Both the position numbers and the translations under genes were made by a program. 64,000 nt of DNA, from positions 2,074,501 through 2,138,500 of the forward strand of contig NZ_CP017415.1 in NCBI RefSeq assembly GCF_001753245.1. The letters run 5' to 3'. Of this stretch, positions 19,201 to 57,465 are shown piece after piece. This stretch comes from Acidihalobacter yilgarnensis. Its GTDB lineage: Bacteria > Pseudomonadota > Gammaproteobacteria > DSM-5130 > Acidihalobacteraceae. Positions within the stretch are counted from its first letter, which is position 1. The number at the start of each line of letters is the position of its first letter. Under the pieces are notes generated by a model. That model searched no databases. It was not told the origin of the DNA and saw only the letters and a list, made by a program, of their open reading frames with translations.

Positions 19201-19503
19201 AGACTCTCGGTGCTGTGGTTCGCGGTAGCCCTGGTCGGCGCCGTACAGTTTCTGGAGCGCGGCGGCGACGAGCCGGCTGTCGTACAGGTGTGCATAGAGC
19301 CTATGGCTCCATTCGCGCTTCTCGGGAAGCGCCTGCTTGCTAACGATGCTCTGGGGTGCCCAAGGAGGGATAGGGCGCGTGCAGGGCGTATCGTGAAGGA
19401 ATGCACCATAGGCGCTGCTGCGTTTTTTGATCTTGGGGGCCGATTGCGGCTGCAGCAACTCGACTGCATGCCAGTACCGGACGATGTTCTCGGGCTCCTT
19501 CAA
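16246..19503 (-). CDS. Large Upf1-like SF1 helicase/ATPase (AAA_11/AAA_12 type)
   Basis: 1085-residue protein with split superfamily 1 helicase motifs: Walker A GVNGPPGTGKTTLLRD near residue 305, Walker B LLVDEAGQALPQAAVG near 830, GDPLQIKPIVT, motif V TIHAMQGKEAPVVIMVLGGN and motif VI NVAATRAKRRFYVIGD. Between them lies a long insertion rich in Ala, Gln and Lys that looks coiled-coil. The N-terminal 270 residues have no motif I know. Large free-standing helicases of this kind are frequent in defence islands, but no partner nuclease sits beside it. The start is uncertain: TTG 19503 follows GGAAAGG and no nearby ATG fits. Confidence 0.8.
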   Translation of the reverse strand: MKEPENIVRYWHAVELLQPQSAPKIKKRSSAYGAFLHDTPCTRPIPPWAPQSIVSKQALPEKREWSHRLYAHLYDSRLVAAALQKLYGADQGYREPQHRESAMFAAKFTMRGQLVEDSFVLSSEAWFLGRALARKDWTRGFEDDQRAAAEQARTQLQGQVSGDALRDFTRWVLQFLGVADFFATIERPPLRFCSQPVKPDKPASEDDPLNSFLLDDLATVADSLSKGVASEALNQYLRRHDPQLRLHIDSDDASPSLIERLMPQAHADSCWPSERHLGLVHSQQLAVNTVLSKLADGQGLLGVNGPPGTGKTTLLRDLIAAIITSRADVLATLRRASDGFASNARETGNDGGKERAAFKLNPSLYGFEIVVASSNNGAVENVTLELPQRDKIDENWLPEAEHFADLGELITGKPAWGLISGALGSKARRKAFVDRYFYGQSPAAGQDKVDNNEEASDEIDDENVAKTLFAGPATAAETNDQQASQQPLKKAPQGLMAWLGEHSQRNKERRPEERQALWQQAVAEYEKAKAQVRLVCAEASRIRALIQTLETTRKKITETTATVQALEKRLAHTAEQQARLDADEGRPANAAFKHALEALAQHQASKPGFWANLCSLWGASRTWNTALKLLQDRHGLAKAEFDRIARLAKQFEDSRQQLDRQIANAQQALKKMRAEDQSLTQQASDLASACRADHLLAWLRDGVIGRGDAIELAEPWHIEGWRQARARVFIQALKLHRTFFELEAARMRFNLFLINAMLTGAHLQGFSREAIRSVWASLFMVVPVLSSTFASFASSFRSLGPGEIGWLLVDEAGQALPQAAVGALWRSRRALLVGDPLQIKPIVTVSDAVLEHMRTRYRVDAHWLPNRQSAQTLADQATTWGRLAGPADSKTWVGLPLVVHRRCDKPMYRLANRIAYDGAMVYGTLAPRADKETRARLPTGWIHASGASDGNWVPAEGEALRALLALLRVDGVDAAEISVITPFKAVQENLKRLLGDSMVSGTIHAMQGKEAPVVIMVLGGNTEGSGARDWAVSEPNLLNVAATRAKRRFYVIGDRNDWQNRSLFRDVMDLLPLQCLPECEAIVAP

Positions 19504-19769
19504 AATGCCTTTCCTTTCTTGTTCTTGGTTTGCTTCACGGTCTACTCTGCGTGGTATTTACTGTCCATCGGCATGAATTGTCATGGATGTCGAGTCCCCT
19601 TGCCACCCCCCATCGGCCGCCCTGACGCTGGCGGGTCGCGGACCGTCCATGGTTGCTTCTGGGGATGAGTCAGCGCGAAGCTTTCCGGCGATACGACCTG
19701 AGCTTGCATTCCCCCTCTCCCGTGCGATCCTAACCCTGTCCAAGAACACGATACACAGGAGAGAACACC

Positions 19770-48572: not shown

Positions 48573-48773
48573 ATGCTGTTCGACACCACTTTCGCTGTCA
48601 TCGATTGCGAGGCCACCGGGCTTGATCTGGAACAAGATCGGCCCGTCGAGGCCGCGGTTGCCCTGCTGCATCCCGACGGCCGCATAGAGCCCACGATCGA
48701 TACCCTGATCGACCCGCAGATCCCGATTGTCGAGTCGCCGCCTTGCCACCTTCGCGCAGTCATCCATGACTGA
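48573..48773 (+). pseudogene. DEDDh 3'-5' exonuclease N-terminal fragment, cut by the IscB element
   Basis: 66 residues: FAVIDCEATGLDLEQDRPVE carries the first catalytic D and E of DnaQ-type exonucleases (D-x-E), followed by the expected strand region and DTLIDPQIPI, then HLRAVIHD, which resembles the usual HxxT approach to the next motif. The frame stops at the border of the HEARO/IscB element, so the rest of the domain is missing. The other half was not found downstream. Confidence 0.7.
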
Positions 48774-48775
48774 AC

Positions 48776-49020
48776 GGAGGCGCCAGGAGACTTGACCAGC
48801 CCGCCCTTCGAGGCAGACGACGCAAAGTGAAGTGAAAACGACTCACCGCCGGGTGCTTCTCCAGCCCGGCGCTCTGAGGCCAAAGTGGACACGGTAGGAC
48901 GCGGCATACCGCCGACCATCAGGCTGAACGACCTTTGCGATCCGGGCGGGGAGACCGTAACCGTCTAGGCCTTCGGGCCATGGCGAGTCTATCGAGGCGC
49001 GTAAGCGCCATGAGGTAACA
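48776..49020 (+). ncRNA. HEARO / IscB omega RNA
   Basis: IscB proteins are known to use a long structured RNA encoded just upstream of the ORF (HEARO RNA). The 245 bp before the ATG contain no ORF and fold into several stems: CGCCGGG-(11)-CCCGGCG near 48848-48872, GCGGCATACCGC, GGCCTTCGGGCC and GCGCGTAAGCGC close to the ATG. The guide would come from the flank at the 5' end. Limits approximate. Confidence 0.7.
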
Positions 49021-50307
49021 ATGAACCGAGTATTTGTATTGAGCCGTACCCGCACGCCGCTTATGCCCTGCCATCCAGCACGAGCAAGAAAGCTGTTGCG
49101 CCACGGCCGCGCGGCTGTTTTTCGGCGGCAACCGTTTACCATCATCTTGTCGGATCGAGAGGCCGGTGAGATCCAGCCCGTGGTCTTCAAGGCCGACCCT
49201 GGCAGCAAGACCACTGGACTGGCGCTGGTAGCCGAGTTCCAACGGGGTCGGCAGGTCGTATGGGCGGCCAACCTCACCCACCGCGGGCATCGCATCAAGG
49301 CGGCCCTGACCGACCGACGGATGTTCCGCAGGGGGCGCCGTGGTCGTCATTGCCGATATCGCCCGGCACGTTTTGACAACCGCACGCGCAAAGCGGGCTG
49401 GTTGCCGCCCTCGCTCATGTCACGGGTCAACAACGTGAGCGCCTGGTACAGTCGTTTGCTCGACCGGACGCCAATCACCGCGGCCCAGGTCGAAACCGTG
49501 CGCTTCGATACCCAGGCGATGCAGACCCCAGGCATCTCCGGCGTCCAGTACCAGCAAGGCACGCTTGCCGGTTACGAGGTGCGCGAATATCTGCTGGAGA
49601 AATGGTGTCGGCGGTGCGCCTACTGCGGGGCAGAAAACGTACCGCTCGAAATCGACCACATCCACCCCAAAAGCCGAGGTGGCTCCGAACGCATCAGCAA
49701 TCTCACGCTGGCCTGCGTGCCATGCAACCAGGCAAAGAGCAACCGGCCCGTAGAGGATTTTCTGGCCCGAGATCTTAAGCGTCTCGCCCGAATCAAGGCG
49801 CAAGCCAAAGCGCCGCTCAAGGACGCCGCGGCCGTCAATGCCACACGCTACGCCATCGGCGACACCCTCAAGACATTCGGCCTGCCGGTGTCGTTCTGGT
49901 CGGGTGGCCGCACCAAGTTCAACCGCACAGCGCAGGGTTACGCCAAGGCGCACTGGATCGATGCGGCCTGCGTGGGCGAGGAAGGCAGCGACGTGAAGGT
50001 CCCTTACGGCTTCCAGCCTTTGATCATCCAGGCCACGGGCCGAGGCCGACGCCGGGTGCGGGGTAACGATCGGTATGGCTTCCCGCGTGGGAAACCGCGC
50101 ACGCAAAAGCGCGTCTACGGGTTCCAGACCGGCGATCTGGCCGAGCTGAAATGTCTCGCTGGAAAATCGGCTGGCGCGCACGTCGGGCGCATCAAAAGCA
50201 TCCGCAGTCGCGGTTGGTTCGTGCTGGACAAGCATGACCGCCCGGCGCGGGAGTTTCGTCTGCTGCAACGGGCGGACGGCTACGCTTACACGGCGGCGAC
50301 GGCATGA
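49021..50307 (+). CDS. iscB: IscB RNA-guided nuclease
   Basis: 428-residue IscB, relative of Cas9. N-terminal PLMP domain: RTRTPLMPCHPARARKLLRH; RuvC-I D in VFKADPGSKTTGLAL; arginine-rich bridge (RRMFRRGRRGRHCRYRPARF-like); RuvC-II E in QVETVRFDTQAM; HNH domain CAYCGAENVPLEIDHIHPKS then RGGSERISNLTLACVPCNQ; RuvC-III HWIDAACVG; C-terminal TAM-interacting part. All catalytic residues are visible, so both nuclease domains look intact. Sits directly behind its RNA, with ATG following GAGGTAACA. Confidence 0.95.
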   Translation: MNRVFVLSRTRTPLMPCHPARARKLLRHGRAAVFRRQPFTIILSDREAGEIQPVVFKADPGSKTTGLALVAEFQRGRQVVWAANLTHRGHRIKAALTDRRMFRRGRRGRHCRYRPARFDNRTRKAGWLPPSLMSRVNNVSAWYSRLLDRTPITAAQVETVRFDTQAMQTPGISGVQYQQGTLAGYEVREYLLEKWCRRCAYCGAENVPLEIDHIHPKSRGGSERISNLTLACVPCNQAKSNRPVEDFLARDLKRLARIKAQAKAPLKDAAAVNATRYAIGDTLKTFGLPVSFWSGGRTKFNRTAQGYAKAHWIDAACVGEEGSDVKVPYGFQPLIIQATGRGRRRVRGNDRYGFPRGKPRTQKRVYGFQTGDLAELKCLAGKSAGAHVGRIKSIRSRGWFVLDKHDRPAREFRLLQRADGYAYTAATA

Positions 50308-50483
50308 AGATCGCGCCGGCGCGTCCGTTCGCGGATCGGACAACGCACGGGTTGAAGCGGGTCCGCTCTGCCGCCGCACATGACTCAAGGCCGGCGGGTC
50401 GCAGCCCGTCCATGGGCTGCTTCGCGGCATGCCGCCGCGCTTTGGCTTGAACGTTATAGGGCCATTTAGCCGGAGGCCCGGCC

Positions 50484-50899: not shown

Positions 50900-51142
50900 A
50901 TGACTACCGCTACCATCACTTCCAAAGGCCAGATCACGATTCCAGCCGATGTGCGCCATGCGCTCGCCGTCGACGCCGGGGACCGGGTGGAGTTCGTCCA
51001 GATTGAACCTGGGCAGTTCCTGTTCGTGGCGGCGAATCGGTCTGTAACGGAGCTCAAGGGCATGTTCGGCAAGCCGGTCAAGACCGTGTCCATCGCGGAC
51101 ATGAACGCTGCCATTGCATCTCGCGGAAAATCGGCGCGATGA
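50900..51142 (+). CDS. VapB-like AbrB-type antitoxin
   Basis: 80 residues with the swapped-hairpin AbrB opening: TTATITSKGQITIPADVRHA, then GDRVEFVQIEPGQFLFVAAN and a C-terminal toxin-binding tail ending IASRGKSAR. Its stop overlaps the ATG of a PIN-toxin remnant (ATGA). SD GGGAGG. The antitoxin appears intact while its toxin is lost. Confidence 0.85.
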   Translation: MTTATITSKGQITIPADVRHALAVDAGDRVEFVQIEPGQFLFVAANRSVTELKGMFGKPVKTVSIADMNAAIASRGKSAR

Positions 51143-55586: not shown

Positions 55587-57065
55587 CTAACACCGTCTGT
55601 CTCTGGCACGAATGCCAAAGCTGGCGGGCAATGGCCCGCCCTTCGCCGCTTGAACAGCACCGGACACCGCTTTCCCCAGCAGCGATTCCACAGCGCACCA
55701 ACCCTTGCGGGCTGATTCGGTGTCCAGTTTCCAAACGCCACCGTCCTCAAGGACATGCAGCGCCAGATACGCACTATACAAATCCCGCTGCGCACGCACG
55801 CCGCACGCGCAATCGTGCCAGCGCTTGCTCAACGGTTTCTTCACCACAGTCCCGCATTGACAGCTTTGCGAGAGTTTCGTGGTCCGGGTCGGAAATTCGA
55901 TTATCTCGCCGCCGGCGCTTGCAGCCTTGCGACGTAGGTGCTCCATGAATTCTCCGGGCGCCCGGTCGCGGACACTCTTGCCGAACATCCGCTGAAAGGC
56001 TTTGTAGCTTAACTTTTCGGCCATGACCGTATCGCCCAAGGCGATAACGTGATTTGCCAGCCTGCCGTGCTCCGAGCGCCGGTAAGCGGCCAGCAATCGG
56101 TGCAATTCTCGCCGTTGGGCGCGCAGACGCAGGTAGCCGTTGGTGAACACCCATTGCAGACGCCGGCCATTTGCCGACTTTTTGATGGTTCCGTCCTTGT
56201 TGTAATTATCCGGATTCGACCCACGCTTCGACCGATCCATGGCCCGTTGTATTCTGCGAATCGCTTTTTGCAGATTGGGCACGTTGGCGCAGAACTGCGT
56301 CAGAAAGGCGTCTGTATCGCTGACGGCGGCGATGGTGGACGGGCCGATGTCGATGGCACTTTTCCCTGGGCGTACGGTTTTTTTATCTTTCCACTTTGGA
56401 ACTCCAGCAAGGATCAACTGCACGAACCAGCGGGTCTTGCCATTCAGTATCCGTCGTACCAGGCGGCAGTATTTGACCGAGTTTTGCAGGGCAAATGCCT
56501 GGACACCGTGTGTATCTTTACAGTCGTAAATTGCCTTGAGTTTGAGTCCGTTCCATTCCAGATGATCGTTGCGCCAGCGCAGGCCGGTCGCGTTGCTCTT
56601 GCCCTCCATGGACGCCAGCGACTTCCACTTGGGTTTGAAGCGGGGTCGGCCACCCGTGCGGAACTGATAGCGTTGTGCAGCCTTGAATGCCCGTGTGCCG
56701 ATTTTCCGGGTGGCGTGGGCATCCAGATGTTCTCCAATCCAGCAAGCATTCTTGCACTGCGTGGCATAGGCTTGCAGGTCGTAATCCGTAAAGCCAATCG
56801 CTTTGGTGATCAGCGAAAACTCGGTGGCGCGTGCTTTTTGTTCGGGGGAACCCGGCTTTCCTTTGGTCATCTTCCGAGCCGCTTGCCAGACCCTGGATTG
56901 CTTCATGAGATCCAGTCGCCGTAGCGCCTCGCCCAGCACCGCGTTATAGAGCTGTCGGCCCGCCTCAAAACGCACGCTGAGCATCCGGCTTTCGTGTGGG
57001 TTTGCCACCAAGGGCAACTCCAGAACGAAAGTGGGTTTCCCAGACCGGGCGCGCGGCTTAGACAT
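55587..57065 (-). CDS. tnpB: TnpB RNA-guided nuclease (IS605 element), long form
   Basis: 492 residues from ATG 57065 (MSKPRARSGKPTFVLELPLV), longer than common 400-residue TnpBs. RuvC D in KSAIDIGPSTIAAVSDTDAF, E in VMAEKLSYKAFQRMFG, zinc ribbon CQCGTVVKKPLSKRWHDCAC, final D in RAQRDLYSAYLALHV. Residues are retained although GPST replaces the usual GxxxxA context. A linker with GSNPDNYNKDGTIKKSANGR is a family trait of the long type. Its guide RNA would overlap the 3' end (about 55560-55720). Confidence 0.9.
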   Translation of the reverse strand: MSKPRARSGKPTFVLELPLVANPHESRMLSVRFEAGRQLYNAVLGEALRRLDLMKQSRVWQAARKMTKGKPGSPEQKARATEFSLITKAIGFTDYDLQAYATQCKNACWIGEHLDAHATRKIGTRAFKAAQRYQFRTGGRPRFKPKWKSLASMEGKSNATGLRWRNDHLEWNGLKLKAIYDCKDTHGVQAFALQNSVKYCRLVRRILNGKTRWFVQLILAGVPKWKDKKTVRPGKSAIDIGPSTIAAVSDTDAFLTQFCANVPNLQKAIRRIQRAMDRSKRGSNPDNYNKDGTIKKSANGRRLQWVFTNGYLRLRAQRRELHRLLAAYRRSEHGRLANHVIALGDTVMAEKLSYKAFQRMFGKSVRDRAPGEFMEHLRRKAASAGGEIIEFPTRTTKLSQSCQCGTVVKKPLSKRWHDCACGVRAQRDLYSAYLALHVLEDGGVWKLDTESARKGWCAVESLLGKAVSGAVQAAKGGPLPASFGIRARDRRC

Positions 57066-57465
57066 GCTTTTGCTGCTCGATGTACTGTTTGACGATTTCC
57101 AGCGGTGCACCACCTACGGTGGAAACGAAATAACTGTTGGTCCAGAGGCTGGGCAGCCGGGTACGGCACCAGCGAAACTCCTGGCGCAGCAGGCGCGAAG
57201 AGCGACCCTTGATCAATTTAACCAGATGATGCACCCCAAACTGCGGGTCTACTTCGACCAGCAGATGCACATGGTCTGGCATGACTTCCATCTCCAGTAT
57301 CTCGCTGTCCGTCTCGGAACACACCTGCTGTATAATCCACTTGAGTCGCGCATCAGCGCCGTTCACCAGCACGTCTCGTCGGTACTTCGGGCACCATACA
57401 ACGTGGTACATACAAGAAAAAACCACGTTTCGATTCGATTTATAGGTAACCTTGTATTCTGACAT
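57058..57465 (-). CDS. tnpA: IS200/IS605 Y1 transposase TnpA
   Basis: 135 residues. HUH single-strand transposase: CMYHVVWCPKYRRDVLV, the HUH motif in MPDHVHLLVEVDP, and catalytic tyrosine in APLEIVKQYIEQQK. Moves single-stranded DNA during replication without target duplication. Length and motifs normal, likely active. Confidence 0.94.
   Translation of the reverse strand: MSEYKVTYKSNRNVVFSCMYHVVWCPKYRRDVLVNGADARLKWIIQQVCSETDSEILEMEVMPDHVHLLVEVDPQFGVHHLVKLIKGRSSRLLRQEFRWCRTRLPSLWTNSYFVSTVGGAPLEIVKQYIEQQKHV

What the first reader, a model, noticed from the sequence alone, without database searches (positions are those of the whole stretch)
48573..50430. Intact IscB with its RNA inserted in a DnaQ-like exonuclease gene
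All RuvC and HNH residues of IscB appear present, and a structured 245-nt upstream region fits HEARO RNA. The exonuclease frame ends exactly where the element begins, so the guide at the RNA's 5' end would match the exonuclease gene. It has no TnpA, though the IS605 TnpA at 57058 might act in trans.
Basis: partly seen in the sequence, partly recalled or inferred. Interest (0 to 1): 0.65.

Follow-up and report, generated by a model that had tools for sequence, protein, structure and literature searches.

The report
IscB element inside a truncated exonuclease gene
This is a small mobile DNA element carrying an apparently intact RNA-guided DNA-cutting protein (IscB, a Cas9 relative) and its guide RNA, sitting in the remains of an exonuclease gene; it is a good new example of a known kind of element, with one odd twist in how it joins its host gene.

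Summary
Window 49021-50307 encodes a 428-aa IscB (NCBIfam guided_IscB, 438 bits, cut-off 175). Upstream lies a HEARO/omegaRNA: Rfam RF02033, 44.8 bits, E 5e-8, below the gathering score of 83, as is usual in its clade (40-67 bits). In six clade members 28 of 53 pairs change on both sides, with 0 of 500 shuffles as high. Sister elements place the element at 48729-50423. In ten elements or mini-elements of this family, this one included, 9 right flanks read NNGG (background 8%), a predicted TAM; here it is GCGG. The presumed guide (48713-48728) is exonuclease sequence, exact once in the genome, and the element's own joint lacks NNGG. Two corrections. First, the exonuclease is not merely split: against the intact gene of a relative (G004) 512-513 nt are missing. 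Second, nothing found links the TnpA at 57058 to the element; TnpA-less IscB is common. Most likely a non-autonomous IS200/IS605-type IscB element in a region with conjugation genes, its guide aimed at exonuclease alleles lacking it. Ordinary in kind; the deletion junction exactly at the guide-side end is the unusual feature.

The parts
48573..48728 (+). N-terminal 52 codons of a DEDDh/DnaQ-like 3'-5' exonuclease gene (remnant)
   Evidence: RNase_T 26.4 bits; 10-14 of 15 bases identical to the intact G004 gene in each 15-nt step from 48579 to 48728, then 7 and 2 of 15
48713..48728 (+). presumed 16-nt guide encoded by the left flank (true length unknown)
   Evidence: lies directly 5' of omegaRNA helix P1; the only exact match in the own genome
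48729..48961 (+). omegaRNA (HEARO) scaffold, starting with helix P1 (48729-48736); left end of the element
   Evidence: RF02033 E 5.3e-8; HEARO hits of L015, L072, L079 and L073 start on this same base; 28 of 53 pairs covary in 6 sequences; the window mispairs at 1 of 53
49021..50307 (+). iscB, 428 aa, PLMP / split RuvC / bridge helix / HNH / C-terminal domain
50308..50423 (+). right end of the element; 7-bp subterminal hairpin ending 3 nt before the end (TTC)
   Evidence: same end in L015, L072, L079, L082, L073 and in own-genome mini-elements; hairpin folded
50424..50429 (+). GCGGCA, predicted TAM (NNGG) on the right flank
   Evidence: 9 of 10 right flanks read NNGG; mean GG frequency 0.083
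50425..50469 (+). C-terminal remnant of the exonuclease gene (last 14 codons and stop)
   Evidence: 14, 14, 14 of 15 bases identical to G001 and 11, 13, 7 of 15 to G004 in the three 15-nt steps; 2-7 of 15 in the steps before it
19589..19659 (+). 71-nt mini-element with the same two ends, no gene (non-autonomous derivative)

Best explanation
A non-autonomous IS200/IS605-type element made of an omegaRNA and an intact iscB. It came to lie next to a GCGG motif in a dnaQ-like exonuclease gene in a region with conjugation genes. Shown by sequence: the IscB protein, the covarying omegaRNA, both ends, the NNGG right-flank rule, and the exonuclease pieces on both sides with 512-513 nt between them missing. 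Inferred: transcription from the left flank makes an omegaRNA whose first ~16 nt copy the exonuclease. IscB then cuts exonuclease alleles lacking the element (guide match followed by NNGG) and spares its own locus, where the guide match is followed by GTCG. This would favour keeping the element and spreading it by repair from the element-bearing copy. Movement is by a TnpA supplied in trans, not identified. The deletion either preceded the insertion or came with or after it at the guide-side end.
For: Protein family, 438 bits against 175, and conserved columns in 25 proteins. HEARO E 5.3e-8 and covariation: 92.3% of cells paired, 28 of 53 pairs changed on both sides, 0 of 500 shuffles as high, slid controls 3-6 pairs; the window mispairs at 1 of 53 pairs. 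HEARO hits begin on the element's first base in L015, L072, L079 and L073. Two copies in G235 (L072, L079; 1,689 of 1,708 bases identical) in different surroundings fix both ends. NNGG in 9 of 10 right flanks. Guide exact once in the genome and followed there by GTCGAGTC; of 7 near-matches inspected (5 with 2 mismatches, 2 with 3; out of 43) 0 carry NNGG. Intact exonuclease in G004.
Against: HEARO score below Rfam's gathering score. The structure tested was derived from the same six sequences, one of which (L074) mispairs at 14 of 53. The closest relative, L015, has an in-frame stop at iscB codon 7, so damaged copies occur in the clade. The G004 gene differs from the guide at 6 of 16 bases (counted by eye) and is followed by CCCG, so it would not be a target. 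No element-free allele of the same species was seen. Near-matches to the guide are more frequent than to the reversed control (44 against 13). Guide length, expression and cleavage are untested. A mini-element with another right flank (ATGA, L012) breaks the TAM rule once.
Confidence: 0.85

Rival explanations
1. Clean insertion into an exonuclease gene that had already lost 512-513 nt (a pseudogene), with the deletion junction and insertion point coinciding by chance or because the junction created a NNGG site.
For: The congener G001 has its own, different internal deletion of the same gene and no element there, so the gene seems dispensable in this lineage. The right flank carries a proper NNGG.
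Against: The insertion would have to hit exactly the deletion junction; GG alone makes up about 7% of dinucleotides in the window, so other sites were near.
Confidence: 0.4
2. Insertion into an intact gene next to GCGG, then (or at the same time) loss of 512-513 nt on the guide side up to the element's first base, by aberrant TnpA strand transfer or a repair event. This would have replaced the guide.
For: A mini-element pair in the same genome (window 19589-19659 and G000:C1:1491208-1491138, minus strand) shares its right flank and 2.6 kb beyond, but the left flanks part at the element's first base, the same geometry.
Against: Clade relatives L072 and L015 look like clean insertions (reading frames on the two sides agree, by eye). 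No ancestral sequence is available; the mechanism is not demonstrated, and the mini-element pair may be an ordinary duplication edge.
Confidence: 0.35
3. A decayed, inactive IscB element, kept only by chance.
For: Single full copy in the genome; one mispair in omegaRNA helix 2; the nearest relative L015 has a stop at iscB codon 7.
Against: Full-length frame without stops, catalytic columns kept, 52 of 53 RNA pairs form, all 8 of P1.
Confidence: 0.15

Closest known systems
IscB (OMEGA family, IS200/IS605; NCBIfam NF040563)
   Same: Domain order, catalytic columns, upstream omegaRNA, guide from the left flank, TAM on the right flank, no TnpA in the element (common: passages of PMC9755519)
   Different: Predicted TAM NNGG. 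TAMs in the passages I saw: NWRRNA (OgeuIscB), MRNRAA (wild-type IscB.m16), and an NNRR preference for a modified editor (PMC11900391). NNGG falls within NNRR, so the difference is small
HEARO RNA (Rfam RF02033)
   Same: Whole-model match, same order of helices, position before an HNH/RuvC ORF
   Different: The clade scores 40-67 bits, under the gathering score of 83; Rfam starts the window match 30 nt inside the RNA start proposed here
IscB element in congener G001 (C4:41408-42715, L076)
   Same: IscB with HEARO of 104.8 bits, 56% identical
   Different: Other branch of the tree, other ends, other site; right end abuts ATGA by eye

Membership tests
IscB | N-terminal PLMP region and arginine-rich RRXRR/bridge helix | tested here: met
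   RRXRR 229.5 bits, residues 4-180; PLMP at residues 13-16 read (PLMP domain named in passages of PMC9581776)
IscB | Split RuvC with catalytic D, E, H/D | tested here: met
   D59, H311, D314 invariant and E158 at least 90% in 25 proteins; which columns are catalytic is recalled knowledge
IscB | HNH domain between RuvC-II and RuvC-III | tested here: met
   HNH 50.7 bits, residues 199-242; H213 and N236 invariant
IscB | omegaRNA directly upstream, same strand | tested here: met
   sub-gathering in Rfam
IscB | C-terminal TAM-interacting domain | tested here: inconclusive
   Conserved columns run to residue 423; no structure predicted
IscB | RNA-guided, TAM-dependent DNA cleavage | not testable with these tools
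   needs an assay
HEARO RF02033 | Score at or above the Rfam gathering cut-off | tested here: not met
   44.8 of 83 bits; described as a divergent HEARO-like omegaRNA on the strength of E 5.3e-8 and covariation
IS200/IS605 element, autonomous | tnpA (Y1) inside the element | tested here: not met
   None between 48729 and 50423; hence called non-autonomous
IS200/IS605 element | Fixed ends with subterminal hairpin and a fixed flanking motif on one side, no target duplication | tested here: met
   absence of duplication in L072 and L015 judged by eye

The most novel reading that the evidence does not exclude
The guide-side end of this element family is a switching point. The TAM-side end stays put while the guide-side end is rejoined exactly at its first base to a new sequence (a 512-513-nt deletion in the exonuclease gene; a different left neighbour for one of two mini-elements with the same right flank). 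For an iscB-bearing copy this would give the nuclease a new guide without moving the element.
Probability: 0.12. Interest if true: 0.6.

Novelty: new member of a known kind. Interest (0 to 1): 0.32.

Why it matters
It is a compact IscB (428 aa) from a clade with a predicted NNGG TAM and an omegaRNA that Rfam's cut-off misses, so it is a testable addition to the known nucleases. If the guide-side switching is real, it would show how such elements can change target without transposing.

Tried and rejected
TnpA at 57058 as partner: its locus and those of the other own-genome Y1 genes (8 loci tested) gave only 11-12-nt matches (E 0.08 and up) to the element's ends. phmmer with this TnpA against the loci held at that time (E<=1e-5) found only own-genome TnpAs; other TnpA kinds may be missed. 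Viral scan: one weak relative, 39% over residues 180-260. Plasmids: 44 records at E<=1e-80, all under 60% identity, so no close copy. Closer intact exonuclease: all 413 plasmid records with a match are under 60% identity; in 398 genomes of the phylum 13 match at E<=1e-30, at 38-46% identity; in 114 relatives only G004 and the own remnant at E<=1e-15. Relatives of the L015 target gene: 1,168 plasmid records, all under 60% identity, so its empty site was not confirmed that way. Empty site of the mini-element at 19589: the G001 match stops at 19498, not informative. The paired-end pattern was written after seeing two mini-elements, so it found those two and no more (reversed control 0). Paper searches: IscB with MITE and IS200 (0 papers); at least three of IS200, TnpA, adjacent deletion, one-ended transposition, flanking deletion (2 papers, search listing only) showed nothing on guide-side switching. 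The library lacks most subscription journals, so this says little.

Counts and dropped rows: the ten flanks include the window itself and three elements of one genome (L072, L079, L082), so they are not all independent; the mini-element at 19589 was left out because it shares its right flank with the one in L110. L078, L080 and the other-clade loci were not counted. End motifs of L070 and L074 were chosen by eye; without those two, NNGG holds in 7 of 8. In the tree L070 was labelled NNGG before its flank was read. An earlier count of two mispairs in omegaRNA helix 2, made by hand, was wrong; one search gives one.

Full report
What is there. The ORF at 49021-50307 (428 aa; no internal stop) is an IscB by Pfam (RRXRR 229.5 bits, HNH 50.7 bits), NCBIfam (guided_IscB, 438.4 bits, cut-off 175) and PDB sequence search (17 sequences at E<=0.001, TbaIscB and several IscBs first). 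In 25 aligned IscBs, chosen from the loci then held, D59, H213, N236, H311 and D314 are invariant and E158 is at least 90% conserved. That these columns are the catalytic ones is recalled knowledge. It is the only full copy in the 3.57-Mb genome; one further weak hit covers residues 198-246.

The RNA. The whole-window Rfam scan at gathering found only a tRNA. A local scan found HEARO RF02033 at 48759-48961, 44.8 bits, E 5.3e-8. Of 12 loci scanned at E<=0.01, 10 gave a HEARO; the two without are the mini-element loci L012 and L084. Members of the window's clade scored 40.3-66.9 bits (L015, L072, L079, L073, L070, L074), and L075, L076, L077 and L081 95.7-113.7 bits. In L015, L072, L079 and L073 the hit starts on the first base of the element (GTYGAG); in L074 it starts further in, and L070 is cut off by its contig end. 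The corresponding base in the window is 48729. In six aligned sequences RNAalifold predicts 53 pairs, 28 with two-sided changes. The pair count gives 92.3% of cells paired, 28 pairs changed on both sides against a shuffle mean of 11.1, 0 of 500 shuffles as high, and 3-6 when slid. The structure came from these same sequences, which favours it. The window copy mispairs at 1 of 53 pairs, in helix 2; all eight P1 pairs form; L074 mispairs at 14.

The ends. Two elements in G235 (L072, L079; 1,689 of 1,708 bases identical) stand in different surroundings and agree from GTTGAG to CTTC. L015 (85% identical in protein, but with an in-frame stop at iscB codon 7) agrees with the window from GTCGAG to GCTGCTTC. 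Two gene-less mini-elements in the own genome have like ends, and a relative of one lies in the window at 19589-19659. The element is therefore 48729-50423. Its right end has a 7-bp hairpin 3 nt from the end.

The flank rule. In 10 elements or mini-elements, the window included, the four bases right of the end read NNGG in 9; the exception is the mini-element L012 (ATGA). GG makes up 8.3% of dinucleotides on average in these loci. End motifs of L070 and L074 were set by eye; without them it is 7 of 8. Three of the ten come from one genome. I take NNGG as the predicted TAM. The six clade members form one group in a tree of 25 (support 83/69; the five without L074 96/89).

The host gene. G004, of the same family, has an intact 243-aa exonuclease (RNase_T 57.6 bits; the only relative with a match besides the own remnant, in 114 genomes at E<=1e-15). 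Step-by-step comparison shows homology to the window up to 48728, loss at 48729, and return at 50425. Between these points G004 has 513 nt (512 if base 50424 is counted as flank) that the window lacks. So the element bridges an internal deletion, and the exonuclease can hardly be functional. The congener G001 has no element here and a different deletion, leaving the start codon and a C-terminal tail. G001 carries another IscB, of another branch, about 10 kb further on.

How it probably works. The guide would be the last ~16 nt before 48729. That 16-mer is exact once in the own genome; 43 further sites have 2-3 mismatches, 44 in all against 13 for the reversed control. Of seven of these inspected, none is followed by NNGG; the other 36 were not inspected. 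Its own locus is followed by GTCGAGTC, so it is not a target under the NNGG rule. The expected action, from work on the family, is RNA-guided cutting of element-free alleles, favouring retention. For the related TnpB a gene-drive action on plasmids is reported (abstract of the preprint PMC11870625). HEARO nucleases are active in E. coli, only a few sit beside TnpA, and 65% of their 5' UTRs hit RF02033 (passages of PMC9755519). [quoted passage not shown] All function here is inferred.

The twist. Two loci of this genome show a kept right flank and a left flank that breaks exactly at the element's first base: the exonuclease (deletion) and the mini-element pair, where 2.64 kb to the right match at 92.8% and the left sides differ. 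Two cases do not prove a mechanism. They are the basis of the novel reading.

Noticed in passing
window 55587-57465 (-): IS605-type element with Y1 tnpA (147 bits) and tnpB (Cas12f1-like_TNB 29 bits) in the same region, next to TraI_2 and TraG/TraD genes.
   Followed up: partly
window 19589-19659; G000:C1:1491138-1491208; G000:C1:~1468241-1468326: Gene-less mini-elements with IscB-element ends; the first two share the right flank but not the left flank.
   Followed up: partly
G001:C4:41408-42715 (L076): A 56% identical IscB with a strong HEARO (104.8 bits) in the congener's related region, apparently abutting ATGA on the right.
   Followed up: partly
G001:C3 near 719000 (L118): At the site of mini-element L012 the congener has a divergent end sequence before the same ATGATTCAGC flank, with other DNA to its left.
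   Followed up: no
L015:2091-2111: In-frame stop at codon 7 of the iscB most similar to the window's.
   Followed up: no
window 50900-51142: Small AbrB/MazE-like antitoxin gene right of the exonuclease remnant; its partner was not examined.
   Followed up: no
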